Source of the DNA: Desulfatiglans anilini DSM 4660
Lineage (GTDB): Bacteria > Desulfobacterota > DSM-4660 > Desulfatiglandales > Desulfatiglandaceae
DNA length: 64,000 nucleotides
NCBI RefSeq assembly: GCF_000422285.1
Contig: NZ_AULM01000003.1
Location: 62,001-126,000 of the forward strand
Direction: 5' to 3'
A program made the position numbers and the translations under genes. Under the pieces are notes generated by a model, which saw nothing but the letters and a program-made list of their open reading frames with translations, searched no databases and was not told the DNA's origin. Position 1 is the stretch's first letter. The number at the start of each line of letters is the position of its first letter. Shown one piece after another: positions 1,587 to 41,374 of this stretch.

Positions 1587-2891
1587 TCAGGTCCATCGCC
1601 GCAGCACCTGCTTAAAGAGGCTGTGCCATCCATCCGCTCCGCCATTCCCCCGCATCCGCTTCAGCCGCATGATCCATCTCTCACTGAGCGTCGGAGGCGA
1701 GGCGGCAAAAGAAATCATCCGATAATCCACCAGAAAGATCTTTTCCGGCTGGGAAGCCAAAAACCGCGTCACTTCAGAAGCAGACGGGTCATTCATACCA
1801 TCATCCCACTCAATAGGCAAACGAAGACCGCAACACGCGCCTGTCAGCACCGCATTCCGCTTGGCCCGTTCGGTGGCGGCCAGGAATTGGTGTCCATAAC
1901 GCATATCGGGTTCGAGATGGCACCCTTCACCCCACTCGTTCCAGGCATTGATAAAGACCAGTTGCAGGTCCCCATCAAACCTCGAACGGGTTCTGGCGAT
2001 GGCCGACGCCAGCCAGAACTCGTATTTTTCGGGGGAAATATTGACAAAGCAATTGCTGCCGTTCTGACGCCGGGCTGTGTTGTCCCACGCAGGCATCACC
2101 GCCCTGAACAGGCAATAATCCGGGTCCTTCGACCGGATGCTGTTCAGAATCACCTCACGATAGTCATAAATGCTGCCTTCGTAGCGGCGGTTGACGACCC
2201 GCAGCCAAGGATTCATCCTGCGGCTGAAAACGCCGTGGGGCGGAAATTCGAGCGCCGAATCGAATCCATACGGCCTGGGATCGGTGATGCCGAAACTCTG
2301 CGCCGCGCACAGATGAACCCCCGGAAATCCTCGCCGATGGCACTCCTCGCGCCAGATCTCGGCGGTTGCCTTGGGGTCCGGCAACAAGTTGACGCGATAG
2401 ACGACCAGCAACGGCCGGCCGTCTATACAGATGTAGCGCCGGTCCTCGAACGCGGGAAAGAGGCTCTGTATGAAGGCCCTGTCATCGTAAGCCGAATGGG
2501 TTTGCGCAATCAGGATCTCCTGCTCGTCACCGTCCCACCGGCGGGTCCAGTTCTCGTTCGCCCAGCACAGACAAAAGGGCATATCCGGCCGGCCGGTTCT
2601 CAAGACCTCCTCGAACGGCCGCTCCAGAAGACGCCTGCCGTTGAACCAGTAATGATGATAGCAGAACCCGTCGATCCCGTAGGCACGGGCGAGTTCGGCC
2701 TGCACTTCACGGGTCTCCGGAACCCTCAAGTCATAAAACCCCAAATCGGAAGGGATGTGCGGCTGGTAATGCCCGACGAAATTGGGCCTGGCCTTCGCGA
2801 CATTGCGCCAATCCGTAAATCCTTTGCCCCACCAGAGATCGTTTTCCGGCACAGGGTGAAACTGGGGGAGATAAAAGGCGATGACTCTCAT
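1587..2891 (-). CDS. WbsX-like / GH99-like polysaccharide biosynthesis protein
   Basis: A 434-residue protein that begins MRVIAFYLPQFHPVPENDLW and continues with GFTDWRNVAKARPNF and CWANENWTRRWDG. These are hallmarks of the WbsX family (glycoside-hydrolase-99-like, annotated as glycosyltransferase WTXG/WbsX in O-antigen clusters). Further conserved blocks are YRVNLLPD, and NAWNEWGEGCHLEPD near residue 320. It is somewhat longer than the roughly 360-residue core because of a C-terminal extension. The family is repeatedly found in O-antigen and capsule loci, but its exact reaction is unsettled: it could be an endo-acting or transferase-like enzyme. It sits between the GT2 gene and the O-acetylation pair, all on the minus strand. 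Confidence 0.85.
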   Translation of the reverse strand: MRVIAFYLPQFHPVPENDLWWGKGFTDWRNVAKARPNFVGHYQPHIPSDLGFYDLRVPETREVQAELARAYGIDGFCYHHYWFNGRRLLERPFEEVLRTGRPDMPFCLCWANENWTRRWDGDEQEILIAQTHSAYDDRAFIQSLFPAFEDRRYICIDGRPLLVVYRVNLLPDPKATAEIWREECHRRGFPGVHLCAAQSFGITDPRPYGFDSALEFPPHGVFSRRMNPWLRVVNRRYEGSIYDYREVILNSIRSKDPDYCLFRAVMPAWDNTARRQNGSNCFVNISPEKYEFWLASAIARTRSRFDGDLQLVFINAWNEWGEGCHLEPDMRYGHQFLAATERAKRNAVLTGACCGLRLPIEWDDGMNDPSASEVTRFLASQPEKIFLVDYRMISFAASPPTLSERWIMRLKRMRGNGGADGWHSLFKQVLRRWT

Positions 2892-9701: not shown

Positions 9702-11174
9702 CTAACCGGAAACAGGACCAGTCGGGATGAACCATCTGCGAACCCTGTAGTAGTATTTGAGTAATTTGACGGACAGGACACTCTTCAACAAAATGCCATC
9801 CAAATGCATCGTAATCGGACCGCGCCGCATCAACCGATTTCGGACAACCTGATAAACGAGATACCAACAGGACGATTCCGTCGAGATAAAACCATCGAGA
9901 ATGCGTTTATTTTTATTATCTATATCAACACATCGCTCTTTTATAATAATGCTAAAAATGATTCTTCTTATGAAGTTATTATAATATTGAGATTGATAAT
10001 AGAAAAAAACCCCCTTCAAAGCTGCAGGCAGCGCACACAAGGTCTGCTTGATGGACTTTATCTTATCAATCAGTGAGATACGAACGTACGGTGATTTTTT
10101 ACCCGTTTTCACATAATGACCTATGACGTTTTCACCATGCTGGAAATAATCATAAAGCGGTTCGTCCACATAACGTATGCAGCCACAGCTCAAAGCGACA
10201 CAGGCGATAAAATGGTCGTGATAGATATCGTCGATCTTTTCAGGAAAGGGCAGCAGGCAAGGGATCAGATCCCGCCGGAACATCGATGCCGCCCCCGTCA
10301 CTGTATTGGCCAGAAGCAGCAAATCGAGCCGGGAAAAATTGTTTTTTCTCGTCGTCCAATAGGTGTCCGAAATCAGATTACCCCGGCCGTCGACGATATT
10401 CATATCGGAATATACAAGGGTCGTCGAATCGTCGAATTCATCCAGCAGCCTCTCGATCTTGGATTCGTGCCACCGGTCGTCCTGATCCGCAAGGGCGACA
10501 TAAGCGGCCTCCTGCGGGACCCGCGTCAAAATCCGCTCGAAATTATGGTAATAACCAAGATTCCATTCATTGGAAAAAAGGAGGAACCTCGGATCATCGC
10601 CGATGCAGTCTGCTATCGAGGAAAGACATTCCGGACTGGAGCAATCGTCGTTCACGATACACACCCAGTTCCGGTAGGTCTGTCTTTTAATGGACTCGAT
10701 CTGCCGCCTCAAAAAGCCGACCGGCGGGTTGTAGGTCGCCATACAGATGGCCACCAGGGGCTCGGCGGCATCTGCCCGCACCGCTACAGGCTCCATTGTC
10801 AAGTCCGGCTCGAGGCGAACCTGCCCCCCATCCACCTCGCAGACCGTTCCATCCGCCAGCACTGCGCTCAGCTTCAGCCCAGCGGTTCTCCGGGCGACCT
10901 CCGCCTGCAGGGGTATCATCACCCAAAACCCGCTGTTCAGGCTGTGCCCCCGCATGTCGGCAATGCCGAATTGCGCACGGAAGACATCCAACCTGGCTAG
11001 ACCGAAGTTCCTGACCGGATGCGCCGCGCCGTCGAAGATCACCGTCAGACTGCGGATGTGTTCCTCCGTGTGATAGCACCAGCCCTGGACATAGAGCACA
11101 TTGCCCTTGCCGACATGCAGGGGTTTCGAAAGGTCCGTATAAACATTAAAGAGGAATTCCCGTCCAAGCGGCAT
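9702..11174 (-). CDS. GT2 glycosyltransferase with N-terminal accessory domain
   Basis: A 490-residue protein. Residues 1-130 form an accessory domain (LYVQGWCYHTEEHIRSLTV, IFDGAAHPVRNFG, ARLDVFRAQFG) that looks like the beta-sandwich at the C-terminus of the WsaF-like neighbour. The GT2 catalytic domain follows: VAICMATYNPPVGFLRRQIE, CIVNDDCSSPE and the DXD-region YVALADQDDRWHESKIERL. The C-terminal 100 residues are basic and more AT-rich, with a hydrophobic patch that may associate with the membrane. The start is an ATG at 11174 with AGGG six bases upstream; a TTG two codons earlier is possible. It is a mid-operon gene, 58 bp after the sulfotransferase. Confidence 0.86.
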   Translation of the reverse strand: MPLGREFLFNVYTDLSKPLHVGKGNVLYVQGWCYHTEEHIRSLTVIFDGAAHPVRNFGLARLDVFRAQFGIADMRGHSLNSGFWVMIPLQAEVARRTAGLKLSAVLADGTVCEVDGGQVRLEPDLTMEPVAVRADAAEPLVAICMATYNPPVGFLRRQIESIKRQTYRNWVCIVNDDCSSPECLSSIADCIGDDPRFLLFSNEWNLGYYHNFERILTRVPQEAAYVALADQDDRWHESKIERLLDEFDDSTTLVYSDMNIVDGRGNLISDTYWTTRKNNFSRLDLLLLANTVTGAASMFRRDLIPCLLPFPEKIDDIYHDHFIACVALSCGCIRYVDEPLYDYFQHGENVIGHYVKTGKKSPYVRISLIDKIKSIKQTLCALPAALKGVFFYYQSQYYNNFIRRIIFSIIIKERCVDIDNKNKRILDGFISTESSCWYLVYQVVRNRLMRRGPITMHLDGILLKSVLSVKLLKYYYRVRRWFIPTGPVSG

Positions 11175-11232
11175 ACTCAACCCTGCGCATCACCTCTGTC
11201 CGCCCCGATTAAGACGGTATCTTCCGGGAACC

Positions 11233-13173
11233 TCAGGAAAGGAAAAACCCCTTGATTTTTCCATAGAAGCGAACCGCCTTCCACGACTGGGAGTCGAAAA
11301 TATTCCGCAGTGTTTCGGCGTGCTCAGTCAAAAGGGTTTCGAGTTCGGTTATTTTTCGGCTTTTCTCATCGACATCCGCTTCCATGAGGCGGATCAATCG
11401 ATTCAGATTTTCTATTTGCGTTTCAAAAGACCGTTCTTTTACCCTGGACTCGGCGATTTCCCGTCCCGCAGACACTAACCTGTCGTTATCATCAAAGTGT
11501 TGTGTCTCTTTTTCCTGAATCACATTTTCAAGGTTTCTAATAACCTCTATCTTTACGCGGATTTCCTTTTCGATGTTCCTACAGTACTGATCTTTTATCC
11601 TCAAAACCGTTTCCTGATTTCTTGTTCTTTCGGATAATGCAAAAATCGCTTTATTCTGCTTGACCAGCAACTGGGTTTTCAAGGAAATCGCCTGTTCTGC
11701 TTCTTTTATTTCATTTTCTCTCTCCAGAACGCTGTTTTCGAGTTCTGAAACACGCAGAAAATGATTTTTTGATTCCTCCATGAGACTTTTGATAACTTGT
11801 TCCTTATTTTCTATTTGCTTAATTAAATTATCGATTTCAACCTTCAAGTTTTCTTCGTTCTTATATGAATCGTTCAGGGCGGCGGTCTTATCCCGAATCT
11901 CGGCATCTTTCTTCAAGATCAGATCCCGGGATTCTTTCTCAAACGCGTTAAACCGAGCTTCCTTTTCCTTCAAGACCTCCCGCGATTCGGACAATTGCCT
12001 GTCTCTATCCGCAAAAATATCTTCATATTCCTTTTTGATTCGCGCCAACTGCTGCTCATTTTCACTCAAAATGCGGTTGTGCCTCGAGGCCAGTTCTTCC
12101 AATTCGATCTGCTTTCGCGACAACGCATCATTGGCCGCAATAACCTGCCGCTCCTTATCCTCCAGGAGTTTCCCGTTTAATTTTTTGATGTCATCTGTAA
12201 ACATATCTTTCTGAGAGATTATCTCCTCAAGGGCAGAAACCTTGGAAACGGATCCCGCCAAGGCGCGCTCATTCTCTGCCAGGGCCGTCATCATCTCACC
12301 CAGCCGTCGCTCAGTGCGCAGTAGCGCGTTTTCTTCACCCATCTGCCGCACAAAGTCAACGAGTGCGGACAATCGGCCCGTTTTCACATCATCCTCGCCG
12401 GCATCCCCCGCTGCATAGCCGTCTCTGCAGACGGCCCGCGTCATCAGATAGATGATCTTGACCCTCGCAGGCAGGTCATCCTCTTCGAAAAACTCCTGCA
12501 GTCCAACCTGCTGGTGATGCAAATCCGAACGGATGGTCTTCTCGACCCATTTGGCATCCTCCGGCCACGCGAGACGGCAGAACTCGACTATCCGCCTGGC
12601 AGCGGAGGTTGGGATCTTGAAGAATTCATCGAAATAGACGATGCAACGCGGCGCGCCTTCCGTGCCACGGAGGGCCGCCGTGACATAATGCTCCCACAGC
12701 CATGCACCGCGCTGCACCGGAATATCATCGCGTTGAAGCAGGGATCTCCCCACTTCCAGGGGGTCGCGCATGCAGACGACAAACCGCAGACCTGGAATGA
12801 GACGGCGCCAAAAAGGCACAAGGATCGTCGTCCTGGGATCCTTGAAACCCCACAATGCATTCACCGGGAAGGAGGCGATGAGGGCTCGCGCCTCTTCAGC
12901 CAGAGAAGCCAGAGCCGGATCCGCATACCACCGCCCTTCGAGAGGCGGCGGTGCATGCCAGGAACCACCGAAATGAGCCAGGATCCGTTCGTTGATATTC
13001 ACGAAATCCTCATGCTCGAAAAAGCCCATCCGGTTCGTTTCATGCGGCGGCAACAGCCTGTCTTCGGGGCCGAGGAACAGGCCGCACGCATGCAGCAACC
13101 CTGCGATCATCGAGGTGCCGCTGCGATGCATCCCAATGACGGCAATCACACCATTTTCCAAAGGGTCTTTCAA
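11233..13173 (-). CDS. sulfotransferase fused to a long coiled coil
   Basis: A 646-residue protein, the first gene after the promoter at 13474-13502. Residues 8-260 are a sulfotransferase-family domain: the PAPS 5'-phosphosulfate loop VIGMHRSGTSMIAGLL, then FGFFEHE-like spacing seen as GFFEHEDFVNINERIL, WGFKDPRTTILVPFW and CMRDPLEVGRSLL. From about residue 290 to 630 it is almost uninterrupted Glu/Lys/Leu-rich heptad sequence predicted to form a coiled coil. Typical family members stop near 300 residues, so the coil is an added module. The preferred start is a TTG at 13173 preceded by AGGAGAGGCGGG; GTG codons at 13197 and 13194 are alternatives. It probably sulfates the glycan, with the coil acting as spacer or scaffold. 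Confidence 0.84.
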   Translation of the reverse strand: MKDPLENGVIAVIGMHRSGTSMIAGLLHACGLFLGPEDRLLPPHETNRMGFFEHEDFVNINERILAHFGGSWHAPPPLEGRWYADPALASLAEEARALIASFPVNALWGFKDPRTTILVPFWRRLIPGLRFVVCMRDPLEVGRSLLQRDDIPVQRGAWLWEHYVTAALRGTEGAPRCIVYFDEFFKIPTSAARRIVEFCRLAWPEDAKWVEKTIRSDLHHQQVGLQEFFEEDDLPARVKIIYLMTRAVCRDGYAAGDAGEDDVKTGRLSALVDFVRQMGEENALLRTERRLGEMMTALAENERALAGSVSKVSALEEIISQKDMFTDDIKKLNGKLLEDKERQVIAANDALSRKQIELEELASRHNRILSENEQQLARIKKEYEDIFADRDRQLSESREVLKEKEARFNAFEKESRDLILKKDAEIRDKTAALNDSYKNEENLKVEIDNLIKQIENKEQVIKSLMEESKNHFLRVSELENSVLERENEIKEAEQAISLKTQLLVKQNKAIFALSERTRNQETVLRIKDQYCRNIEKEIRVKIEVIRNLENVIQEKETQHFDDNDRLVSAGREIAESRVKERSFETQIENLNRLIRLMEADVDEKSRKITELETLLTEHAETLRNIFDSQSWKAVRFYGKIKGFFLS

Positions 13174-13561
13174 ATTCCCGCCTCTCCTTGTCACCACCGG
13201 CAGACGATCCGATCTCCATATCAGAAAGGAGAGCAGACCGCTTGACGTCCCGAAGGCAAGCCACCGGCCATGAACTCACGTATCGCCGACGCGGCGAAGC
13301 CGGGCCCACCGGGACCAAGCGACACCCCGCACGCAAAAAACAGGATCTAATTGTTCAGGAGAATAGGATTGTGTTGAATCTTGGGACGAATCAGAAACGG
13401 GACCTCACCGGGTCATTTTCCCCTGCCGAAGCCTGCTCTCGAGATTGGCCTCAAACCCGTTGCCGATAGCGGGAATATAGCGAAATATAAAGCATATGTC
13501 AAGGAAGCACACGGTTCCGGCATGCAAATAAAGACATCGAGGGCCTCTGAAGAATCGGCAT
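13174..13561. other. intergenic region with promoter and long leader
   Basis: A 388-bp gap between the stop of the WecA-like fusion gene and the start of the sulfotransferase gene, both on the minus strand. No protein gene could be supported. It holds the promoter at 13474-13502. From the expected transcription start near 13466 the leader would be about 290 bases, long for a simple 5' UTR. I did not find a convincing ops/JUMPStart element (GGCGGTAG) or a textbook intrinsic terminator in it. Confidence 0.5.
13474..13502 (-). promoter_or_regulatory. sigma70-type promoter for the leftward operon
   Basis: On the minus strand, TTGACA at 13502-13497 is followed by a 17-base spacer and TATATT at 13479-13474: a perfect -35 box and a five-of-six -10 box at the optimal distance. 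It points to the sulfotransferase gene and the genes down to position 1. Its presence implies that these genes need not depend on read-through from lptF/lptG. Confidence 0.7.
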
Positions 13562-15388
13562 TCAATCTATGATCAACTTCATCTGCCGTATATTGACATT
13601 TGATTTCAACCTTTCACAAGTATCGCCGATTGCTTTCCGTTTCTCCGAATCGATGTCTTTAAAAGCAATGATCATTTCTTTAATATTATGTTTCGCTAAA
13701 ATAGACTCAAAATCTTCTATGGTTCCAATTACTTTATACCCTTTGATACGTTTGCCTTTCAAAACTTTATTATCATCGATGAATCCAACGATCGACAGAT
13801 TCATTTCGGAATTGGATTCAATCTCTTTTATAACCATCTGTCCACCGACACCCGCACCATATATTAAAACAGGATCACCGTTCTTTTTGCTTTTCTTTAC
13901 CACTTCATCCAAAATACGGGATGATAGCCGTGAAAGAGAAATCATAATAAATATTATAACCCAATAGATCACAAAAACAGCTCGTGAAACACTTTCGAAT
14001 CGATAGACAAACAATAGGAAAAGCATGGTCGCGACGCATCCGAGCGTAATTGCTTTAATAAGAACGATCAGATCGCTAAGCCCCACAGTCTCCCAGACGG
14101 ATTGATATACACCGAACAGAAAAAAGGATGCTACCTGGGCAGACAGGAGGATCGGAAGCGACTTCAGAAAAATATCGAAATTCGCCCCGACTTGCCCTTC
14201 GAAACGCAACAGATAGGCGCTGTAATAAGCGATGGTAATCATCCCCGCATCCAGCAGCACTGCCAGGATACCCTTACGGTAGGTAAAATTCACCAATATC
14301 GGAGTGAGCCTCGTTGATTCGACGTCCGCCAGGATCGACCGCTCGGGATATACCTTGACCTTCCCAAGGTAGATCCAAAAAAATACGACCAGAAGCAGGT
14401 ACAAACCGATCAGCAGGATCCCCGGCCCCAACCCCACATAGTGGATGGCCAGGGCAAGCCCTCCGGAAACCGCGGCGAATGCGTAAAGCACCAGCACGGC
14501 TTTCCGCTCGCTCAGACCGATAGCCACCATGCGGTGGGAGGAATGATCCTTTCCCCCCTGGGAGATCCTGCGGTGGAACAGCTTCCGCATCAGGCTCACA
14601 AAGGCCGTATCCAGGATCGGCACGAACAGGATCATCACCGGCACGCCGATCACGGACACCAAATGAACAAATCCGTGTTCCGCAGCCCTCGCCGAACCGC
14701 CTGAAACCGTCAAACATGCCAGCAGGAAGCCGATATAGAGGCTCCCGGCATCGCCCATAAAGATCTTGGCGGGATTGAAGTTGTAGATCAGGAAACCGAG
14801 GACGGCGCCGGCGTAACAAAGGCTCAGAAGCAGCGTCTGCTCCCTCAGGACAAAAGGCTGCGCCAGAAAGAGCCAAAGAGCCAGAAACGCCGCCCCCAGA
14901 AAGGCAATGCCGGCGGCCAGGCCATCCATGTTGTCGAGGAGGTTGAATGCATTCGTAATCCCTACCACCCAGAGAATCGTCAGAAAGAGGTTCAGCGTGT
15001 CGAATTGCGTCCAGCCCAGTCGAAATCCGAAGTAAACCAGCGCGGAGGTGATGATCAACTGTCCGGCCAGTTTGTGCTGCGGGGCCATTGCTCGAAGGTC
15101 GTCAGCGAGCCCAAGCCCGAACATGGCCGCCCCGCAAATCACCACCGGCAGAATCGGCGCCCCGAATTCCCGCCACCCAAGCTGGCAGACCATCATCGAC
15201 CATGCGCCATTCAAGGCCACAAAAATCGCACATCCCCCGAGGAGCGCCGTCTTCCGGCGATGCCAGCGATTCTCCCGTGGAATCGCCACGTATCCATGCC
15301 TGACGGCGAACCATCTGACGAGCGGAGTCAGGAAAACGGCCAAACCAAACGCAAGACCGAGCGACAGGGGATACTCGAGCGATATCAT
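13562..15388 (-). CDS. WecA/MraY-like phosphoglycosyltransferase fused to CapD/FlaA1-type N-terminal module
   Basis: A 608-residue fusion. Residues 1-340 are a polytopic WecA/WbpL-type polyprenyl-phosphate sugar-1-phosphate transferase: GLADDLRAMAPQHKLAGQ, NAFNLLDNMDGLAAGIAF, FMGDAGSLYIGFLLA and GGKDHSSHRMVAIGLSERK. It would prime glycan synthesis on undecaprenyl phosphate. The remainder has further membrane segments and a nucleotide-binding-like Rossmann segment, VLIYGAGVGGQMVIKEIE then IVGFIDDNKVLKGKRIKGY. This matches the N-terminal half of CapD/FlaA1 dehydratases, but the catalytic SDR domain is absent. The start is an ATG at 15388 after AGGGAAGG. It lies 39 bp after lptG, so lipid-carrier priming and LPS export are linked. 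Confidence 0.86.
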   Translation of the reverse strand: MISLEYPLSLGLAFGLAVFLTPLVRWFAVRHGYVAIPRENRWHRRKTALLGGCAIFVALNGAWSMMVCQLGWREFGAPILPVVICGAAMFGLGLADDLRAMAPQHKLAGQLIITSALVYFGFRLGWTQFDTLNLFLTILWVVGITNAFNLLDNMDGLAAGIAFLGAAFLALWLFLAQPFVLREQTLLLSLCYAGAVLGFLIYNFNPAKIFMGDAGSLYIGFLLACLTVSGGSARAAEHGFVHLVSVIGVPVMILFVPILDTAFVSLMRKLFHRRISQGGKDHSSHRMVAIGLSERKAVLVLYAFAAVSGGLALAIHYVGLGPGILLIGLYLLLVVFFWIYLGKVKVYPERSILADVESTRLTPILVNFTYRKGILAVLLDAGMITIAYYSAYLLRFEGQVGANFDIFLKSLPILLSAQVASFFLFGVYQSVWETVGLSDLIVLIKAITLGCVATMLFLLFVYRFESVSRAVFVIYWVIIFIMISLSRLSSRILDEVVKKSKKNGDPVLIYGAGVGGQMVIKEIESNSEMNLSIVGFIDDNKVLKGKRIKGYKVIGTIEDFESILAKHNIKEMIIAFKDIDSEKRKAIGDTCERLKSNVNIRQMKLIID

Positions 15389-15427
15389 GCCTTCCCTGAT
15401 AAACGCTATCACTCTATGAAACCTCGA

Positions 15428-24567: not shown

Positions 24568-25417
24568 AACCCTTTCCAGACTCCATAATTTTCCATCCCC
24601 GCGCCCGCCTTCTTTCCTTTTACGTTTTGTTTAGCCTCAAGGGATCTCCCCTTTTACTAACAACATGCTCCGAAGAATTCCTTTCAGTGATCTTGAGACA
24701 AATATAATATTTTATTGGCAACTTCCGCATCTATCATCCAATTCCTACATTTATATATAAAAATATGCCTCTCTTTGCTTACGATTTTCTTAACAGTCCC
24801 CATCAAATCCCTCTTCCTCCTCATCTACCCTTAAAAACCAAACAGTATAAACAGAAACAAATCAAATCTTGATTTAAACATAAAATTAATGCAAACGTAC
24901 CCATCCAAACGCCACCGACACCATAAATGATTTAACTCACCATTCGCTTACTTTCCACAACATACAAACTCGCAGCGAGTCATCCAATAGACTTATTATC
25001 ATAAAACCTAAAAATAAAAAAACTTATCGATTAAATCGCATAAATCAATATCGCAATACCAACCTTTCAAAAACATAAATTAGCAATTAGCTAATAGGTG
25101 TCTCTCTTATAAGACATTCTATTAGAAGTAAGCATCCCCAGCAGAAACTCCCTGCACGCAATTTTATGCAGCGAAAATTGCCGCATTCCTGATACCTCTA
25201 ATCATTTTTCTACTTACACATAGATATTTCGAAAATATTTAAAAAACAAATATAAACTACTTTTCACTTCTCAAACTTTATGTTATATTCTACACATTTT
25301 CAATACCAACACGACAAGGCACATATGCTAAACAGTATGTAGTTATGCATTCAATATATATAATTGCATGAAATATTCCATTTTGTTCAACAAACTAATT
25401 TTCCCGCTGGTGAGACA
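24568..25417. other. AT-rich intergenic stretch without a recognised gene
   Basis: About 850 bp, clearly richer in A and T than the flanking locus. No ORF with a plausible start, ribosome-binding site and protein-like composition was found, and no transposase remnant, terminal inverted repeat or tRNA was recognised. A candidate promoter for the next gene is at 25261-25289. The composition resembles that of the gene that follows, so both were probably acquired together. Confidence 0.5.
25261..25289 (+). promoter_or_regulatory. candidate extended -10 promoter
   Basis: TTTTCA at 25261-25266, a 17-base spacer and TATATT at 25284-25289 with TGT directly before the -10 box (extended -10). It lies about 130 bases before the ATG at 25418. 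The surroundings are very AT-rich, so chance matches are likely. Confidence 0.35.
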
Positions 25418-28132
25418 ATGTATCTACTTAGCCTACATTATGCTATTGCAATATACATTTTATGGTATTTTATGGGAATTGGCCTGTCCATATCACTACA
25501 AAAAAAATTCCCACATATACATCACTTTCCTTTTATTTTCTCACCCGTACTCGGTGCAGCATTAATTATAATAGTTACAGAAAATCTTTCCTACTTTGGG
25601 ATAGGGTGCAAGGTTTCATCTTGGGCATGCCTAGCACTCTCAATCGCAATTTTCATATATGTAATTTTATTCAAGAATTATAAGTTGACTTTCTCTCTGT
25701 CGAAACATAAAGCCGTAATATTCCTACTTGCAACAACCTTCACACTAGTAATATTTCATAACATTCTCTTCCTAGGGGCTGGAGACTTCGTATACCCCCA
25801 TAGCGTTGACAACTTCTACCATGTCTCTAACGCGTCCTATGCTGCTGACTTAACGACATACCAAGAAAATCAAAATGCATTCATTAACGGCTACCATAAC
25901 GCAATAAATGTTTACAAATACTATGGAACACGAATGGGTTTAGAATTTCTTCTTGCCTTTAATTCCACTCTTCTTTTTTCAGATCCTTTTTATGTGTTTC
26001 ATGGAACAGCATTCGCAATTTATTTTATCATATTTTTGATCGCTATGACTATTCCAATCTCAATGGGTTCAACCGCTCCAATAACAACTATCATTAAAGG
26101 AATTCTATTAAGTACTGCAGCATGTTACACGTCGGTATTTCTTGGTGGATACTATCCTAATAGCGCGGGGCTTCTCTTCGCAATACCAATGATTTATTTA
26201 GTTTGCAATTTCCATCATCAGTTTAATTATGTGATACTTTTTGCCAGCAGTTCATTGTTTACATTGATAGTCAGTTGCTATCCCGAATATTTACCACTAA
26301 TTTCTTACATTATCGTCAGTTATATAATAATAATTTTTTTCAAATTGTCACTTTATAAACAATGCTATTTTAAAAATATTATTTTTATACTTACTACAGT
26401 CGTTATAGCTGTAGCAATAGACTTACCTGCATACGGCCGCCTTTTTAAGGTATTTTACAATAGGCTTGGCATACTTAGCGGAAGCATCTCTCATGGTGGC
26501 GATGTGGTCATTGGCAAAAATGTCTTTGCTGATCTTGCCACTTTACTTACTGGATGGAACCTTACTAATCCCATTTTGATTTATTCTCTACTCTTTGTTT
26601 TCATCCTTTTACTATATATTAATGCGAAATTTGCTGCAAGCGATCACGATTACCATTACGGAATATTGATGCTTGTGTCTGTCATCTGCTTCACATTTTT
26701 AAGTATGCAATATTTTCGTTACATAGGATATTCTTATGGAATTAAGAAGACATTACTTCTGTCATGTCCTTTTATATTTATGTTTTTTCCAATTTCTCTA
26801 AATTTTTCACATAAATTCAATTTATTTTTTCAATTTATCAACATCGTCTTGGCTGTTATTTTGATTATCAATAATGGGTTTTTCATACGCAGACAAAACC
26901 AGAAGATTTTTAATACCACAACTATTAATGATATCGCTCTTTCAGGCGACATTGGCGGACTATCTGAAGTTCTGGAGGGAAATGCGACTACCCCTAAGAG
27001 GACCATTGGGGCTTGTATTCCATTTGATATTCCAGCTATGTGGGCTTCATATTGGCTCTCACGCGAGAAAATAAACATTGAACATTTAGTTATGCCTCGC
27101 TATTTTAAGCTCTGGGGTGTGCACTCAGCAGACAATTTACGCGAATACAATATCGTTCCTAGATATGGATGCGATATTATTAATCATTGCACATCCGGAT
27201 CCGTTGTCTGGGGCAACGAAAATTATAAACTTATTAAATCAGCACCTTTTCTCGTGACACTTGGAAATGGTTGGTCTTGGCTACACCTCGAGAGAAAAGA
27301 CACACCATATCGGTGGACTGAAAACGAATTCAGCATAATAGTAGCGTCCACTGTTCATGATAAAATTCAATTAAAATTTGACTGTCTTGTTCCAATTCGT
27401 GGAACTCTAACTGCCACTTTTTGTGGCAAAAAAATTTATGAAAAATCATTTGCTAATGAATCAAAAGAATCGATTAGCATATCCGATTTTAATTTGACTC
27501 CTGGCGTTCATGAAATTGCATTTTCTTACAAATCCCTTTCTGGCAGCAAAAATGGCCGTCCCAAATATAGAAGCGGAATATGTGTTCAAACGGTCAATTA
27601 CTTCGGACGTACTAAGAGATGTGATTTTTCTGAAGCCCTACCGCCAAATTCGCTGCGGGTGATGCCCATTCAATCCAAGAAAATTAATGATATTGTTATA
27701 AATTATAATCAACTTGCTGAGAAATGCTATTTTGATGACAGTATTCTTGTGAAGAATGGCTCTTCATACGTTACTTTAGCTGATGGCTGGTATAAAACTG
27801 AAATATTAGATACTAACGATGTTGTACGTTGGATGAAGCCTAAGGGAAATTTAATTGTTGAAGCTTTTCAAGATGTCGATTTAGTTTTCGAAATTTCTAT
27901 TCTATATGGAGTGAAGGGCAAACTTAATCTTTTTATTGGAGAACAATTTGTCGAGCAGAAAGACCTTGATGGTACGAATCAGAAAATCGTGTTTAATCCT
28001 ATACCATTTAAAGAAGGGCGTCACAAAATCAGTTTTATAATTCATGATAAAGGCGTAATGCCATATGTTACCGATAATAGATCTCTGAGTATTCTCGTTA
28101 CAGAGATTGCAGTTAGTGAGATATTGCCTTAG
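25418..28132 (+). CDS. large GT-C-like membrane protein with duplicated beta domain
   Basis: A 904-residue protein I cannot assign to a named family. The first 500 residues hold about a dozen membrane helices; the first loop contains GAGDFVYPHSVDNFYH, and acidic residues after helix one are typical of GT-C glycosyltransferases. The rest is soluble and contains two related beta-sandwich units, each opening with a pattern like VTLGNGWSWLHLE or VTLADGWYKTEI and then an R-W pair (YRWTENEF; VRWMKPKG). The start could be a TTG at 25364, but the ATG at 25418 with GGTGAG upstream is more likely. Codon use is strongly AT-rich compared with the rest of the window, indicating foreign origin. Likely role: periplasmic glycosyl transfer from a polyprenyl-phosphate sugar. 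Confidence 0.7.
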   Translation: MYLLSLHYAIAIYILWYFMGIGLSISLQKKFPHIHHFPFIFSPVLGAALIIIVTENLSYFGIGCKVSSWACLALSIAIFIYVILFKNYKLTFSLSKHKAVIFLLATTFTLVIFHNILFLGAGDFVYPHSVDNFYHVSNASYAADLTTYQENQNAFINGYHNAINVYKYYGTRMGLEFLLAFNSTLLFSDPFYVFHGTAFAIYFIIFLIAMTIPISMGSTAPITTIIKGILLSTAACYTSVFLGGYYPNSAGLLFAIPMIYLVCNFHHQFNYVILFASSSLFTLIVSCYPEYLPLISYIIVSYIIIIFFKLSLYKQCYFKNIIFILTTVVIAVAIDLPAYGRLFKVFYNRLGILSGSISHGGDVVIGKNVFADLATLLTGWNLTNPILIYSLLFVFILLLYINAKFAASDHDYHYGILMLVSVICFTFLSMQYFRYIGYSYGIKKTLLLSCPFIFMFFPISLNFSHKFNLFFQFINIVLAVILIINNGFFIRRQNQKIFNTTTINDIALSGDIGGLSEVLEGNATTPKRTIGACIPFDIPAMWASYWLSREKINIEHLVMPRYFKLWGVHSADNLREYNIVPRYGCDIINHCTSGSVVWGNENYKLIKSAPFLVTLGNGWSWLHLERKDTPYRWTENEFSIIVASTVHDKIQLKFDCLVPIRGTLTATFCGKKIYEKSFANESKESISISDFNLTPGVHEIAFSYKSLSGSKNGRPKYRSGICVQTVNYFGRTKRCDFSEALPPNSLRVMPIQSKKINDIVINYNQLAEKCYFDDSILVKNGSSYVTLADGWYKTEILDTNDVVRWMKPKGNLIVEAFQDVDLVFEISILYGVKGKLNLFIGEQFVEQKDLDGTNQKIVFNPIPFKEGRHKISFIIHDKGVMPYVTDNRSLSILVTEIAVSEILP

Positions 28133-34258: not shown

Positions 34259-36802
34259 TCACGGCAATAACCTGAGTGCACGCAGGATCCTGACAAGGCG
34301 GCGGCCCAACACCTTCTTCTGCGCCTCCAGCTTCGCACTCATCAGCTCCCGTTCCCGTTCAGCCAGTCGAATCCTGGCCTCCATTTCAACGACGCGGTTT
34401 TCGCACTTCGCGAGGCTTTCCTGCAACCTCTGTTTGTCAGTCTCTTCCCTCAATGACGATTTTTCGCTCAAGCTGATCCTTTCCTCTTCCCGGCTCAGCG
34501 CTTCCCGGCACTGCTGCAGATCCTTCTCCAATCCTTTCAACTTCTTACCGAGAGAGGCAATCAGCCGGTCCTTGGCTGTGATCCGCGCAGCACTGTCAGG
34601 ATCCTTTTTCGCCAGCTCTTTCGTCAAACGATCGATTTGCTCGATGCACCCTCTCCGGTCCTTCTCCAAATGCGTAATCTCGGCCTGGAAAATCTCTTCC
34701 GCCTTCGTCTTTCCATCGAGCGCGGCCTCCACTTTCTCCAGCCTATCGTAGAGCGCACTGATCTGCCGCAGTTGAGCGGCGCATTTCTCTTCCAGATCCT
34801 TCACCCTTTTCCCTGTCAGGGTAAGCTGTCTGCCGCGTTCGATTCGATCCGCGTCCAGCCGTCTCACCTCGGCCAGAAGCTGCTCTTCCGTTTCATTCTT
34901 CTCCCTCAGCGCCTGATTCAGCTGGACCGTGTACCCGTCCAGACGGTGGATCTGTTCGAGCCGCTTCGCGTTATCTTCCTCGAGACCCGCCAGTTTCTCC
35001 AGCAATCTTTCAATCTGCCCGCCCCGTTCGAGCCGGTCCGCATCGAGCCGCCTCACCTCGGCCACGAGCCGCCCTTCCGTCTCATTTTTATCCTTCAGGG
35101 CCTGATTCAACTGGACCGTCTGTTCGTCCAGGCGGCGGATCTGCTGAAGACGCTCCCCGCTCTCCTTTTCGACCTCTGCCAGCTTTTGCCGCAGACTCTC
35201 GATCTGTCCGCCCCGAGCTATCCGATCCTTTTGGAGGCGATCCATCTCGGAGAAGAGATTATTCATCTCGGTCTGCTTTCGGGCCAAGTCTTCGGTTAGT
35301 GAAAAGATCTGATGCAAACGCGCTTCGGACTCGGCCTTCAGAGCGTCGTTCTCCTCCTCGAGAAATCGCGTCATACGCTCTGAGCTTTCCAGCCTCAAAG
35401 GGACGCGCAGCCTCTCGACATCCCCGCCGAAGTCCACGTTCCAAACCGCATCCCCCTGCAGCGGACCGCCCCCAGTTGCGCCAGGCGCCGCCGGCGCGCC
35501 TTTTGTCTCACGCTTCCGCCTGGTGCGATCCCTCAGAACAGACTCGTAGAGCTTCAGGTATCTTCCTGCCTGGTGACGCAGGGAGAAATGGTCAACGATG
35601 CCGCGTCTGGCATTTCGGCCCAGGCAGGCCCTCTTCTCCTCGTCCGACAGCGTCTCGATCACAGCGATCGCCATCCCGTTGATATCCCCCGGAGCGACCA
35701 GGAAGCCGTTTTCCCCGCTCCGAATGACATCCGGCATGCCGCCGACGGCAAACGCGACCACCGGTGTGCCGCAGCTCATGGCCTCGAGCATCGTGTTCGG
35801 CAGATTGTCTTCGAGGGAGGACTGCACAAAGACATCGGCGGCTACATAAGCGTTGCGGACCGCCTCCTGCGAAGACAAATACCCGAGCGACATCACTCTC
35901 AAACCGGCCTGTTCCCACTCGGCGGGGGGATACCCGAAGCACAGGAGGCAGATACGGTCCTCCTCGATCCACGCCTCGAAAGACGGATCCCTGCGGCAAT
36001 TCGACAGCACGCGCACCAGTTCGGCAAACCCCTTCCGCTTTTCGGTGCCGTATTCGGCCCCGAAAAGGATCGTGCGGGTATCCGGGTCCAACCCGAGCCG
36101 CTCCTTGGCCTTCGGCCGATAGGAAGGCTTGAAAACGTTCGTTTCGAGGCCGTTAGGGATGACCTCGATCCGGCGCCCTCTGAACAAAAGGCTCCGCCGC
36201 GCGCACTCGGCCATCCAGCGGCTGGGGGTCGCAATCGTCAGATCAGCCCCCTCGAACAATCCCTGCTTGTCCTTCAGCACGGCGGCGGGCAATCCCAGGG
36301 GGTCATCCTGCAGTTGGGGACAATCTCGGCAACCCTCTTCGTAACCCCTGCAGCCGGCGCTGTAATGGCAGCCGCCGCTGAAGGCCTCCTGATCGTGAAG
36401 GGTCCACACGACCGGTTTCCCGGAACGGAAAAGCCGGCACAAGGTGACAGGCGACAAAAAATCGGTGACCCAATGCAGATTCACGATATCCGCCCCCTGG
36501 ATCTCCGGGAGCGCGCCGATATCGACCCCTGGGAAGGGGAAGGAGAAGAGCGTATTGCTGACGGACGTTCTGGATCTTCGGATATAGTGCTCCTGCACGG
36601 CCTCGATCAGCCGGAAATCCTTTTCAAGGCGCGGGGGTCTTTCTCCGGGGTCGGCGCAATGAATAGTCCCTTCCCGGGAATGCTTCCAGCGGACCAGCAT
36701 GCGGCTTTCCACACGGATCCCCAGCAACCCCAGATGCAGCCGATAGGCCGCTCTCGCCGCCCCCCCCATCTGATCGTATGTATTGATATGGGAAACCTTC
36801 AC
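34259..36802 (-). CDS. GT4 glycosyltransferase with C-terminal coiled coil of 63-residue repeats
   Basis: An 847-residue protein. Residues 1-410 are a GT4 enzyme: VSHINTYDQMGGAARAAYRL, VVWTLHDQEAFSGGCHYSAG with nearby CRDCPQ, LFGAEYGTEKRKGF and the nucleotide-binding DNLPNTMLEAMSCGTPVVAF. From about residue 480 to 830 it is continuous heptad sequence. Within it, residues 522-584, 585-647 and 648-710 are three tandem copies of a 63-residue (nine-heptad) module with the pattern RL-ADR--RG-QI---L. Related copies occur in the GT4-like protein at 41394-43778. The start is taken as GTG at 36802, with AGGA upstream. The coil is a probable oligomerisation or spacer element. The gene lies between the GT2 gene and the triple glycosyltransferase. 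Confidence 0.86.
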   Translation of the reverse strand: MKVSHINTYDQMGGAARAAYRLHLGLLGIRVESRMLVRWKHSREGTIHCADPGERPPRLEKDFRLIEAVQEHYIRRSRTSVSNTLFSFPFPGVDIGALPEIQGADIVNLHWVTDFLSPVTLCRLFRSGKPVVWTLHDQEAFSGGCHYSAGCRGYEEGCRDCPQLQDDPLGLPAAVLKDKQGLFEGADLTIATPSRWMAECARRSLLFRGRRIEVIPNGLETNVFKPSYRPKAKERLGLDPDTRTILFGAEYGTEKRKGFAELVRVLSNCRRDPSFEAWIEEDRICLLCFGYPPAEWEQAGLRVMSLGYLSSQEAVRNAYVAADVFVQSSLEDNLPNTMLEAMSCGTPVVAFAVGGMPDVIRSGENGFLVAPGDINGMAIAVIETLSDEEKRACLGRNARRGIVDHFSLRHQAGRYLKLYESVLRDRTRRKRETKGAPAAPGATGGGPLQGDAVWNVDFGGDVERLRVPLRLESSERMTRFLEEENDALKAESEARLHQIFSLTEDLARKQTEMNNLFSEMDRLQKDRIARGGQIESLRQKLAEVEKESGERLQQIRRLDEQTVQLNQALKDKNETEGRLVAEVRRLDADRLERGGQIERLLEKLAGLEEDNAKRLEQIHRLDGYTVQLNQALREKNETEEQLLAEVRRLDADRIERGRQLTLTGKRVKDLEEKCAAQLRQISALYDRLEKVEAALDGKTKAEEIFQAEITHLEKDRRGCIEQIDRLTKELAKKDPDSAARITAKDRLIASLGKKLKGLEKDLQQCREALSREEERISLSEKSSLREETDKQRLQESLAKCENRVVEMEARIRLAERERELMSAKLEAQKKVLGRRLVRILRALRLLP
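34673..35239 (-). repeat. three tandem 189-bp coding repeats
   Basis: Units at 35239-35051, 35050-34862 and 34861-34673 each encode one 63-residue coiled-coil module. The first two are clearly alike at DNA level; the third is more diverged. The unit length equals nine heptads, which preserves coil register. Confidence 0.8.
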
Positions 36803-37000
36803 CGCATTCCTACGCCTCTGTCTGAATCTCCCCCTGCAAAACCGCCCCGCGCCGTCAATCGCCCGCCCCGCAGGCATCAACGCGATGCGCACCCTGTCTC
36901 TCTATGTGCGACTCATCTTTCAGAGGGAACAAACCTGTTACCCGCATCCGCAGAAAGAATTTCTCGAAGGAAAGCGCCCTTCCGTCATCCTCAGACGGCC

Positions 37001-38198: not shown

Positions 38199-39134
38199 TC
38201 AAGTCTCTTCCCGGAAGCGGACCGGATCCGCCTGCTCTCCATCCTCATGAAACGCCCGCTCGACCCCGCGCCGGAGATGCACCCGGATCCCGGGGGTAAT
38301 AAACGCATCCCTCACGGCGGTGAAATCCGCCCTCAGATCGTCGAGCCGATCCAGGTCTGAATCCGTCAGCCCTCCCTCCCCGGCCGCCTTCTGAAGCAAG
38401 CGATAGCACTCGACCAGCCGGCTCCCGGGATAATCCTGCCCGGCATCGCCCTCGTCCACGCTGTGGTGTCGCATGCCGGGATCGATGAACGCCTCGATCC
38501 GCTCGCTCACCTCCTCGTAAGAGCAAGGCCAGTCGATCCGCAGGGCGCTCGTGAGATCTTCGATGGCTGCAGGCGTATCCCTCAGCAGGCTGTCGAACAG
38601 CATAAAATGCCTTTGGGCATGCCGGCTGTAAAACTCGGCGTACAGCATATGCTGCAGGCAAAGCAGCTGCGCCTGCCGCTCTCCGACGCCCTCCCGCCTG
38701 CACAAGGATCGCACCGCTTCGAACGGGTTCCTCAAAGGGAGGGCAACCACCAGCCGATCCGCCCTCTCTTCGAGGGGCCTGCGCCAGAAGGGGTAAAGGA
38801 CGCACATCCGTGGATCCTTGATGCCAAAGACGCCCTCCCCGGTGAACTCTTCATCGAGAATACGCTCCGCCTCCCTCTTGATCCCGTTCAACGCGGCGTC
38901 CTCCCACCATCCGTCCTGCAGCAGGAAGGCGTCGGCCCAGGTGGCACCGAAGGCATGGAAGATCTTTTCGTTCAGGGCACAGATCCGGTAGTTCTCGAAA
39001 TAGCCTTTGGGATTGCCCTCTGTCGGGGCCATCATGATCTTCCCCAGTTCAAGGCCGAGATGATGAAGGATACCCATCAGCGCCGATGTCCCGCTCCGAT
39101 GCATACCCAGCACCACAATGCACGCTCCAGCCAT
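38199..39134 (-). CDS. sulfotransferase family protein
   Basis: A 311-residue single-domain sulfotransferase with the PAPS-binding loop IVVLGMHRSGTSALMGILHH, then GYFENYRICALNEKIF, FGIKDPRMCVLYPFW and LPLRNPFEAVRSLCRREG. It is closely related to the N-terminal domain of the coiled-coil sulfotransferase at 11233-13173 but lacks any coil. The ATG at 39134 follows GGAAACGGGG; an upstream in-frame ATG at 39239 would place 35 unmatched residues before the fold. It lies directly downstream of the Wzt gene. Sulfation of the glycan before or during export is a reasonable inference. PAPS-forming genes are not in the window. Confidence 0.88.
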   Translation of the reverse strand: MAGACIVVLGMHRSGTSALMGILHHLGLELGKIMMAPTEGNPKGYFENYRICALNEKIFHAFGATWADAFLLQDGWWEDAALNGIKREAERILDEEFTGEGVFGIKDPRMCVLYPFWRRPLEERADRLVVALPLRNPFEAVRSLCRREGVGERQAQLLCLQHMLYAEFYSRHAQRHFMLFDSLLRDTPAAIEDLTSALRIDWPCSYEEVSERIEAFIDPGMRHHSVDEGDAGQDYPGSRLVECYRLLQKAAGEGGLTDSDLDRLDDLRADFTAVRDAFITPGIRVHLRRGVERAFHEDGEQADPVRFREET

Positions 39135-39189: not shown

Positions 39190-40548
39190 TCATCCCTTTG
39201 CCGTCTCAAAACACAGATCCGGCTCGATGCAGAAGTCAACGATCCCCGTGGTCAACATCCCCTCCTCCTGCTGCACCCTGATCATCTCGACGTCGACTAT
39301 CCGATGCAGAAAGACCTCGTCTCCTCCCAACACAGCCGTGACACCGGCATTCATGAAATAGACGCCCGGGTGAAGAAGACACCGGAACCGCATCTTCACA
39401 AGCACCACTTTGCCGGCCTCCACACAGGGGCAGGCGTCGAAAAGCGTCGAAGAAGCGGCACCCCCCAGTTCGAGGCCGCTCACGGTCTTGATCATCGAAC
39501 CGAACCGCACATTGAATGCATCCGCATGAAAGGTCACCCGGTAGGTATAGACATATTCCTGTCTGGGCGCCAGTACATTGACGCGTTCGCCGTCCAGGGT
39601 GGTGATGTGCACATCGGCGATCTCCGCGCCCCTGGATTCATAGTAAAGGGTGCTTTTCGGAATCAGATTCGGGTCGTAAAAGGCCTTCATCCCGTCCGAA
39701 TCACCTGCCGCTGCTCCGCCGGTTCGTTCCGGAGGAACGGCCTTCGAGAAGACGCCTTCGGCTCCGATCCTGATTTCGTTTCTCACCGCTTCCACCCTGT
39801 CGGGCGGCGCAAAGATGAGTTTGTGATACTTCGAAACCACGTGCTTGGGCGTCCCCTCGAGAATGAGTTCGCCCTGGTCGAGCAAAAGCGCCCGGTTGCA
39901 TATTTCCACCACGGTCTGGGCCGAGTGGGACACGAAAACAATCGTCTTCCCGGCCTTCCTGAACTCCTGCAAGCGCGCGTGGCACTTCCTCTGAAAGATC
40001 TCGTCCCCCACCGACAGGGCTTCGTCGACGATCAAGATCTGAGGGTCCACGTTGATCGCGACGGAGAAGGCCAGGCGGATGAACATACCGCTCGAATAGG
40101 TTCGCACAGGCTGGTCGAGGAAGTCACCGATATCGGCGAACGCGGCGATGTCATCCAATCGCCGCGTCATCTCGTCACTGCGCAGCCCCAGGATAGCGCC
40201 ATTCAGATAGACGTTCTGCCGCCCCGTGAAATCCGGGTTGAAACCGGCGCCAAGTTCGAGCAGCGCCGACACCCGGCCCGATACGGACACAACCCCGCTC
40301 GATGGCTCGAGGATCCCGCAGATGAGTTGGAGCAGCGTCGATTTACCGCTGCCGTTGCGGCCGACGATCCCGACGGTTTCACCGGCGTAGACGGTGAAAG
40401 AGACATCGCGCAGGGCGTCGAACGGTCGATGATACCGTTTGCGTCGAGGGTGAAAGACCTCCTTTACACGGTCGAGGGGGCTGTTGTAAAGCCTGTAGGT
40501 CTTGGTCAACCCCCTGACGTCGATCACCGGTTGCTTATCCTTGTTCAT
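39190..40548 (-). CDS. wzt: Wzt-like ABC transporter ATP-binding protein with C-terminal glycan-binding domain
   Basis: A 452-residue ATPase of the polysaccharide/O-antigen export (ABCA/TagH) type. Walker A is GRNGSGKST at residues 63-71, the signature is TYSSGMFIRLAFSVAINVDP, Walker B is ILIVDEALSVGDEIFQRKC, and the H-loop is VFVSHS. After residue 235 comes a long extra domain, DVHITTLDGERVNVL to the end, that matches the Wzt C-terminal beta-sandwich. In characterised systems this domain recognises a terminal modification on the finished chain. The ATG at 40548 gives a 22-bp gap after the permease gene; another in-frame ATG at 40587 overlaps it. It pairs with the permease just upstream. Confidence 0.92.
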   Translation of the reverse strand: MNKDKQPVIDVRGLTKTYRLYNSPLDRVKEVFHPRRKRYHRPFDALRDVSFTVYAGETVGIVGRNGSGKSTLLQLICGILEPSSGVVSVSGRVSALLELGAGFNPDFTGRQNVYLNGAILGLRSDEMTRRLDDIAAFADIGDFLDQPVRTYSSGMFIRLAFSVAINVDPQILIVDEALSVGDEIFQRKCHARLQEFRKAGKTIVFVSHSAQTVVEICNRALLLDQGELILEGTPKHVVSKYHKLIFAPPDRVEAVRNEIRIGAEGVFSKAVPPERTGGAAAGDSDGMKAFYDPNLIPKSTLYYESRGAEIADVHITTLDGERVNVLAPRQEYVYTYRVTFHADAFNVRFGSMIKTVSGLELGGAASSTLFDACPCVEAGKVVLVKMRFRCLLHPGVYFMNAGVTAVLGGDEVFLHRIVDVEMIRVQQEEGMLTTGIVDFCIEPDLCFETAKG

Positions 40549-40570
40549 CGGTCGCAGCCCCGCATTGCTT

Positions 40571-41374
40571 CTAAAGGACATCGGCAAAATGGGGTTTCAG
40601 CCGTTTGAACACCAGCGCTCCGAAGACGAAGAGCGATCCGGCAACAGCCCAAAAATAAAGCGTTTCATAAGGCCGCTCCCAAAAAGGGACAAAATAGATA
40701 AAGGAGTCACGATAGCCCTGAACGATATAGAACATCGGATTCAGTTCAAGATATATATGGATCTCGGGGGGCATCATTTCCAAATTCCAGAAGATCGGTG
40801 TCGCCCAGAAACCCACCTGGATGAAAACATTGACCACATGGGATATGTCTCGGATAAAGACATTCAGAGAGGCGCCGATCCACCCGATGCCAAGCGCCAG
40901 CGTCGTCATGGCGAAAAGGTAGTACAGAAACTGCAGGTAATAAAGATTGACAGGCATCCGATGAAACAGAATCAGGAGGATCAGCACACTGAGGAAAATG
41001 GAATGGGTAATCAGGGATGCCACCACCTTGACGATGGGGAGGATCTGCGAGTGCAGGAGGGTCTTCTTGATCAGGTTGGCATTGGATACAACGACCCCGA
41101 CCGAGCCATTCACCATGTCGGCAAACACGAACCACGCGGCCATGCCGCATGTCAGCCATACGACGAACGGGACATTTTCAGCCGGCTGGACCCTGAAACC
41201 CAAACTGAAAATCACCCAAAAAACCACGACGAGGATCACAGGATTGACGAAGGTCCAGATAAAACCCAGCAAGGATCCCATATACTGCCGCGCGATCTCA
41301 CGCTTCGCCATCGACCAGATCATGTTCCGCTGAAGGACTAACAGCCGGATGAAATAGTAAAAACTCTTAAACAT
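40571..41374 (-). CDS. wzm: Wzm-like ABC-2 polysaccharide export permease
   Basis: A 267-residue ABC-2 type permease with six membrane helices. It has the family features FYYFIRLLVLQRNMIWSMAK, REIARQYMGSLLGFIWTFVN (the coupling region before helix 1) and LFYIVQGYRDSFIYF-like sequence near residue 210. Length and hydrophobicity match Wzm, KpsM and TagG. With the ATPase downstream it would export the finished lipid-linked polysaccharide across the inner membrane. The ATG follows CAGGGATAC. It is 19 bp after the coiled-coil GT4-like gene. The presence of this pair shows that at least one polymer of this locus uses the ABC-transporter-dependent route. Confidence 0.93.
   Translation of the reverse strand: MFKSFYYFIRLLVLQRNMIWSMAKREIARQYMGSLLGFIWTFVNPVILVVVFWVIFSLGFRVQPAENVPFVVWLTCGMAAWFVFADMVNGSVGVVVSNANLIKKTLLHSQILPIVKVVASLITHSIFLSVLILLILFHRMPVNLYYLQFLYYLFAMTTLALGIGWIGASLNVFIRDISHVVNVFIQVGFWATPIFWNLEMMPPEIHIYLELNPMFYIVQGYRDSFIYFVPFWERPYETLYFWAVAGSLFVFGALVFKRLKPHFADVL

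What the first reader, a model, noticed from the sequence alone, without database searches (positions are those of the whole stretch)
11233..13173. Sulfotransferase fused to about 340 residues of coiled coil
The PAPS-binding sulfotransferase domain (GMHRSGTS) is followed by almost continuous heptad sequence. If fully helical it would span roughly 50 nm (340 residues at 0.15 nm each). WbdD joins a chain-terminating modification enzyme to a coiled-coil ruler; this protein has the same logic with sulfate as the cap. It may be a sulfate-capping ruler, a class I do not know to be described.
Basis: partly seen in the sequence, partly recalled or inferred. Interest (0 to 1): 0.68.

Follow-up and report, generated by a model that had tools for sequence, protein, structure and literature searches.

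The report
Sulfotransferase on long coiled-coil arm
A bacterial enzyme that attaches sulfate to sugars is built on a roughly 50 nm coiled-coil arm, the same body plan as the 'rulers' that measure and cap surface sugar chains. Relatives elsewhere sit exactly where the known capping enzymes sit, so sulfate may be an overlooked chain cap, although this particular gene is not the best-placed capping candidate in its own genome.

Summary
Observation confirmed. ORF 11233-13197 (-), 654 aa, is a PAPS sulfotransferase fold (residues ~17-228) followed by a ~360-residue, proline-free coiled-coil arm.

The sulfate-capping-ruler idea is partly supported.

At class level it gains support. Across many phyla, sulfotransferase-coil proteins sit immediately downstream of wzm-wzt, some fused to glycosyltransferases; Pelagicoccus copies the wzm-wzt-wbdD-wbdA order. 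In 59 Wzt_C loci not chosen for sulfotransferases, the gene after wzt was a methyltransferase in at least 13 and a sulfotransferase in 5. Both head types can end their coil in one signature, SxSW[RK]-x-x-x-P-L, which is ~25-fold enriched in that slot.

For the window protein the evidence is mixed. For: the coil, a partial tail signature, operon genes WbsX and WsaF (fused or adjacent to slot sulfotransferases elsewhere), a PAPS supply, no Wzy/Wzz nearby. Against: it lies 26 kb from the only Wzt_C gene; that slot holds a coil-less sulfotransferase; a coiled GT4 (34259-36892) is a rival ruler; a Wzx-like flippase follows in its operon; its domain branches outside the slot-rich part of the tree.

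New variant of a known kind: terminator/ruler architecture with a sulfate head. Capping and ruling remain untested.

The parts
11233..13197 (-). Sulfotransferase-coiled-coil protein, 654 aa, GTG start
   Evidence: ORF; Pfam PF13469 E=1.4e-9; 89% identical gap-free counterpart in congeneric genome G001
12514..13149 (-). Sulfotransferase domain (residues ~17-228) with PAPS-loop GMHRSGTS (13111-13134) and KDPR (12832-12843)
   Evidence: Pfam, invariant motif columns, AlphaFold + Foldseek to PAPS sulfotransferases
11290..12378 (-). Coiled-coil arm (residues ~274-636), proline-free, 231 residues at P>0.5
   Evidence: COILS-type scoring with shuffles; helices in model
11236..11292 (-). C-terminal tail SQSWKAVRFYGKIKGFFLS, partial form of the coil-end signature SxSW[RK]xxxPL
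   Evidence: Signature at the coil end in 23/103 ST proteins versus 2/1324 other ORFs; window copy lacks the TxPLR half; helical moment not exceptional
13562..15412 (-). Upstream WecA-type initiating sugar-phosphate transferase (+Rossmann domain); the only initiator found in the block
   Evidence: Pfam PF00953, NCBIfam
9702..11180 (-). GT2 glycosyltransferase, 53 bp downstream of ST-coil
   Evidence: Pfam PF00535
7172..9637 (-). WsaF-type glycosyltransferase fused to a methyltransferase, same operon
   Evidence: Pfam PF22772/PF21374 + MTase; WsaF is adjacent or fused to ST genes in other loci
1587..2891 (-). WbsX protein, same operon
   Evidence: Pfam PF14307; WbsX fused or adjacent to ST in the wzt slot in 7 of 8 other loci
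38199..39134 (-). Second, coil-less sulfotransferase in the slot directly downstream of wzt (rival cap enzyme)
   Evidence: ~33% identity to ST-coil; groups with slot sulfotransferases
39190..40587 (-). Wzt with Wzt_C (cap-reading type) domain; the only one in the genome
   Evidence: Pfam PF14524 E=1.7e-26; genome search
40571..41374 (-). Wzm permease
   Evidence: Pfam PF01061
34259..36892 (-). GT4 with ~350-residue C-terminal coil: rival ruler; contains a 189-bp (63 aa, 9 heptads) tandem repeat

Best explanation
The protein is a cytoplasmic PAPS-dependent glycan sulfotransferase with the body plan of a chain terminator: catalytic head, long oligomeric coiled-coil arm, and a C-terminal end that meets the membrane or the polymerase complex. 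The most likely mechanism is that the tail holds the protein at the membrane-bound synthesis complex and the arm keeps the head up to ~50 nm away. Only a lipid-linked chain long enough to reach the head receives sulfate on its outer end, which stops growth and marks the chain. Shown: fold, motifs, coil, partial tail signature, and ABC-type export genes and a PAPS route in the genome. Inferred: oligomer state, membrane/complex docking, terminal position of the sulfate, arrest of growth, ruler action, and that Wzm/Wzt exports the product.
For: Fold and motifs. Coil above composition shuffles, no proline. Head-coil(-GT) sulfotransferases occur in many phyla directly after wzm-wzt, e.g. L049 Pelagicoccus wzm-wzt(Wzt_C)-[4 bp overlap]-ST-coil-GT4-GT2/GT4 and L018 Wzt_C then ST-coil-GT2-GT4. 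In 59 Wzt_C loci chosen without regard to sulfotransferases, the gene after wzt was a methyltransferase in at least 13 and a sulfotransferase in 5 (one with an overlapping start), and the sixth sulfotransferase seen lies 1.3 kb downstream of wzt. A coil-end signature SxSW[RK]xxxPL is shared by methyltransferase-headed and sulfotransferase-headed slot proteins and is enriched in slot genes (8/49 versus 4/523 other ORFs, p=6e-7). WbsX, a gene of the window operon, is fused or adjacent to slot sulfotransferases elsewhere (7 of 8, p=2.6e-4; 5 of 6 after removing near-copies, p=0.003). Genome: only Wzt_C is in this block; Wzy_C and Wzz hits are only on contigs 19/29; APS kinase present.
Against: The gene is 26 kb from wzm-wzt, and the slot there holds a coil-less sulfotransferase. 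The ST domain is on a long isolated branch outside the slot-rich clade, while the coil-less paralogue is inside it. Its nearest relative, ST-coil L027, has no ABC transporter within 14 kb. The operon ends with a Wzx/MOP-like flippase, 55% identical between the two species. Coil presence is not significantly linked to the wzt slot (22/29 versus 45/80, p=0.08). The tail signature is only half present and not unusually amphipathic. GT4coilA is an alternative ruler.
Confidence: 0.43

Rival explanations
1. It is a non-terminating, decorating sulfotransferase. It sulfates a repeat-unit, side-chain or oligosaccharide intermediate made by its own operon (GT2, WsaF-MTase, MTase, WbsX, MBOAT/AlgX acetylation, Wzx-like flippase), and the coil only scaffolds it to its glycosyltransferases. 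The ABC-exported chain is capped by the coil-less sulfotransferase next to wzt, with the coiled GT4 (34259-36892) as ruler.
For: Slot position and tree place of the coil-less sulfotransferase. GT4coilA is conserved at 93% in G001, with a ~350-residue coil carrying an in-register 63-residue repeat. Wzx-like gene in the ST-coil operon. Ten of 12 loci with more than one sulfotransferase pair a coiled with a coil-less one, suggesting divided labour.
Against: No Wzy or Wzz near the operon. WbsX-linked sulfotransferases elsewhere are almost all in the wzt slot. The head-coil-SxSW layout matches slot terminators.
Confidence: 0.38
2. Both sulfotransferases act on the same ABC-exported chain: one sulfates internal residues, the other the end; ST-coil acts as an assembly hub, with length control by the coiled GT4.
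For: Recurrent pairing of coiled and coil-less sulfotransferases; both conserved and syntenic in G001.
Against: No direct evidence of a shared substrate; separate transcription units.
Confidence: 0.12
3. It sulfates something other than a polysaccharide, such as a protein tyrosine or a small molecule.
For: Closest solved folds are tyrosylprotein sulfotransferases.
Against: Embedded in a 60-kb glycan-assembly block, and relatives are repeatedly fused to glycosyltransferases.
Confidence: 0.05

Closest known systems
WbdD (E. coli O8/O9a, K. pneumoniae O3/O5) terminator and coiled-coil ruler
   Same: Group-transfer head at the N-terminus, long coil, C-terminal docking region; relatives occupy the wzm-wzt-X-polymerase gene order.
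   Different: Head is a PAPS sulfotransferase, not a methyltransferase/kinase; coil ~50 nm if fully helical versus ~20 nm (PMC5082667); the window gene is not next to wzt; no activity or ruler data.
WbbB (K. pneumoniae O12) and ORF6-O7 (PMC11231755): terminator-coil-glycosyltransferase single proteins
   Same: Relatives L018, L163, L066, L036 have sulfotransferase-coil-GT in one chain beside wzt.
   Different: The window protein has no glycosyltransferase module; cap enzyme type differs (Kdo transferase or methyltransferase/kinase versus sulfotransferase).
PF13469 Sulfotransfer_3 family (e.g. Mycobacterium Stf9, Stf0)
   Same: Fold, PAPS-loop, KDPR and 3'-phosphate-binding residues.
   Different: Long C-terminal coil and polysaccharide-cluster setting.
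Aeromonas salmonicida wbsalmo cluster (PMC4483657)
   Same: Wzt followed by a sulfotransferase-domain protein (216 aa), then WbbB.
   Different: No coil on the sulfotransferase reported; the authors found no sulfate in the O-antigen structure and left it unexplained.

Membership tests
PAPS-dependent sulfotransferase (PF13469) | Family profile match above the curated cut-off | tested here: met
   39 bits versus cut-off 27
PAPS-dependent sulfotransferase (PF13469) | PAPS-loop and 3'-phosphate-binding motifs; sulfotransferase fold | tested here: met
   Invariant columns; the best Foldseek hits (E<=1e-3) are PAPS-sulfotransferase-fold enzymes
PAPS-dependent sulfotransferase (PF13469) | Sulfotransferase activity | not testable with these tools
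   Needs an assay; PAPS route (APS kinase) present in genome
WbdD-type chain terminator/ruler of ABC-dependent glycans | Catalytic group-transfer head plus extended C-terminal coiled coil | tested here: met
WbdD-type chain terminator/ruler of ABC-dependent glycans | Genome has Wzm/Wzt with a cap-reading C-terminal domain | tested here: met
WbdD-type chain terminator/ruler of ABC-dependent glycans | Gene in the wzt-adjacent terminator slot | tested here: not met
   26 kb away; slot holds another sulfotransferase. Met by relatives L018, L049, L066, L163 and others
WbdD-type chain terminator/ruler of ABC-dependent glycans | Coil-end SxSW[RK]xxxPL signature found in slot proteins (defined here, not from the literature) | tested here: inconclusive
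   Half present: SQSWKAVRFY
WbdD-type chain terminator/ruler of ABC-dependent glycans | C-terminal amphipathic membrane helix | tested here: inconclusive
   Basic/aromatic tail, helical moment no higher than shuffles (p=0.53)
WbdD-type chain terminator/ruler of ABC-dependent glycans | Modifies the non-reducing end, stops growth; coil length sets chain length | not testable with these tools
   Requires biochemistry

The most novel reading that the evidence does not exclude
Sulfotransferase-headed coiled-coil terminators are a widespread, undescribed branch of the polymerase-terminator systems. One coil-plus-SxSWRxTxPLR arm is shared with methyltransferase-headed terminators, the heads are swapped, and sulfate is the cap read by the Wzt C-terminal domain. 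The window protein is an unlinked member of that branch.
Probability: 0.42. Interest if true: 0.75.

Novelty: new variant of a known kind. Interest (0 to 1): 0.52.

Why it matters
Known caps on ABC-exported glycans are methyl, methyl-phosphate/phosphate, or a special sugar such as Kdo (PMC9445017). Sulfate would add a charged cap chemistry, predict a sulfate-reading class of Wzt C-terminal domains, and explain orphan sulfotransferase genes beside wzt such as the one in Aeromonas salmonicida (PMC4483657). The shared coil-end signature with methyltransferase-headed proteins gives a sequence handle for finding terminators of any chemistry.

Tried and rejected
Searched solved structures by sequence: no hit; fold search was needed. 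Tested whether coil presence tracks the wzt slot within sulfotransferases: only a trend, p=0.08. Tested tail amphipathicity: not above shuffles. Tried the window block as an ordinary Wzx/Wzy locus: Wzx-like gene present, but Wzy_C and Wzz only on other contigs. Considered the coiled GT4 at 41394-43808 as the conserved ruler: rejected, because it and the next two GT genes have no match above 60% identity in the G001 block. Literature searches combining sulfotransferase with Wzm/Wzt, coiled coil or chain termination found no description of sulfate-capping rulers; the library lacks most subscription papers, including the 2020 JBC review of these systems, so absence there is weak evidence. A first classification of Wzt loci with a home-made Wzt_C model missed most loci and was replaced by known match positions.

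Full report
OBSERVATION. The ORF is 13197->11233 on the minus strand (654 aa). Residues 18-213 match Sulfotransfer_3 (E=1.4e-9). The PAPS-loop GMHRSGTS, KDPR, R144/S152 and R156 are invariant in 32 relatives. The AlphaFold model places the N-terminal domain among PAPS sulfotransferases (tyrosylprotein sulfotransferases, Stf9, Stf0). The arm, residues ~274-636, has no proline from 285 on; 231 residues score as coiled coil against 97+/-41 in composition shuffles. The monomer model shows helices with two low-confidence breaks (514-545, 562-586). At 0.15 nm per residue the arm is about 50 nm if unbroken. The congeneric genome G001 keeps the same length with no gap at 89% identity.

SETTING. The gene lies in a ~60-kb glycan-assembly block. 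Its own run of genes (all minus strand) is ST-coil, GT2, WsaF-methyltransferase, methyltransferase, MBOAT, AlgX-like, WbsX, GT2, then just outside the window a 10-helix protein whose G001 counterpart, 55% identical, is a Wzx/MOP-type flippase by Pfam. Upstream, 365 bp away, are a WecA-type initiator, LptF and LptG. 26 kb away lie Wzm and a Wzt with the cap-reading Wzt_C domain, the only one in the genome. Directly after wzt comes a second, coil-less sulfotransferase (38199-39134), then a GT2 and a GT4 with a ~350-residue coil. Wzy_C and Wzz occur only on other contigs. APS kinase is present.

THE CLASS. A scan of 85,000 genomes with an alignment of these sulfotransferase domains gave 80 loci in many phyla. 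Of 103 sulfotransferase proteins in the fetched loci, 49 have at least 50 coil residues after the domain and 19 have at least 150. Many sit directly after wzm-wzt. Some end after the coil, like WbdD (Pelagicoccus L049, where wzm, wzt with Wzt_C, the sulfotransferase-coil gene and GTs follow in the wzm-wzt-wbdD-wbdA order). Others continue into glycosyltransferases, like WbbB (L018, L066, L038, L036).

LESS BIASED SAMPLE. I then took 60 Wzt_C loci from the window's phylum without regard to sulfotransferases, using the best-scoring matches; 59 were usable. The next gene after wzt was a methyltransferase in at least 13 and a sulfotransferase in 5 (one with an overlapping start). The sixth sulfotransferase seen lay 1.3 kb downstream of wzt. 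So sulfotransferases occupy the same slot as the WbdD-like methyltransferases.

A SHARED COIL END. Slot proteins with methyltransferase heads (L111, L113, L115, L119, L121, L123, L127) and with sulfotransferase heads (L163, L018, L036, L061, L079...) finish their coil in S-x-S-W-[RK]-x-x-x-P-L or a close variant. In the Wzt_C sample it occurs in 8 of 49 slot genes versus 4 of 523 other ORFs (p=6e-7; one of the four, L119, is itself a slot gene with an overlapping start). This suggests one arm-plus-tail module with exchangeable heads. The window protein carries the first half (SQSWK) but not the second.

LINKS OF THE WINDOW OPERON. WbsX, a gene of the window operon, is fused or adjacent to sulfotransferases in the wzt slot in 7 of 8 other cases (p=2.6e-4; 5 of 6 after removing near-copies, p=0.003). 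WsaF genes are likewise often next to or fused with sulfotransferases, about half of them in the slot. This ties the window operon to ABC-type assembly despite its distance from wzt.

AGAINST. The slot in this genome holds the coil-less sulfotransferase, which groups with slot sulfotransferases in the tree, while the ST-coil domain sits on an isolated long branch near L027, whose locus has no transporter in 14 kb. The coiled GT4 downstream of wzt is a rival ruler: it has an in-register 63-residue repeat and is conserved in G001. Within sulfotransferases, coil presence and slot are only weakly linked (p=0.08). The tail is not unusually amphipathic. Pairs of one coiled and one coil-less sulfotransferase recur (10 of 12 loci with more than one), so two jobs are likely, and which one caps is open.

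VERDICT. For this gene I give it 0.43, against 0.38 for a decorating enzyme with a scaffolding coil. Caveats: the coil predictor and several profiles were my own; the sulfotransferase loci were selected on that domain; counts include related genomes; the literature library is incomplete.

Noticed in passing
window 41482-41846 and 34826-35215: Both GT4-coil genes contain a tandem 189-bp repeat (63 residues = exactly 9 heptads), 97% matching in 41394-43808 and 75% in 34259-36892: in-register duplication that would change coil length without breaking the heptad.
   Followed up: partly
window 41394-50117: Three GT genes (GT4-coil, GT4-GT2, GT4-coil-GT2) between wzm and the 552-aa membrane protein have no match above 60% identity in the otherwise syntenic G001 block, where wzm nearly abuts the 552-aa gene; possible insertion or strain-specific segment.
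   Followed up: partly
window 38199-39134: Coil-less sulfotransferase 55 bp after wzt; the same arrangement occurs in L116, L158 and L167 and is reported for Aeromonas salmonicida (PMC4483657).
   Followed up: yes
L111-L170 (Wzt_C loci), e.g. L111:8563-10227, L115:9070-10320, L127:8577-9662: Slot genes after wzt carry diverse methyltransferase heads (Methyltransf_11, FkbM, Methyltransf_24) on a coil ending in SxSWRxTxPLR, which looks like a general terminator signature.
   Followed up: partly
L025:17301-18641 versus L017:5788-7131: The Wzx/MOP-like gene at the end of the ST-coil operon is only 55% identical between two species whose neighbouring genes are 90-98% identical, and the genes after it differ: a variable, serotype-like end.
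   Followed up: partly
window 25364-28132: 922-aa, 12-helix protein without Pfam or NCBIfam match and without a close counterpart in the fetched G001 region, beside a GT2 with two helices and a small methyltransferase; possibly a GT-C enzyme of a periplasmic side-chain system.
   Followed up: no
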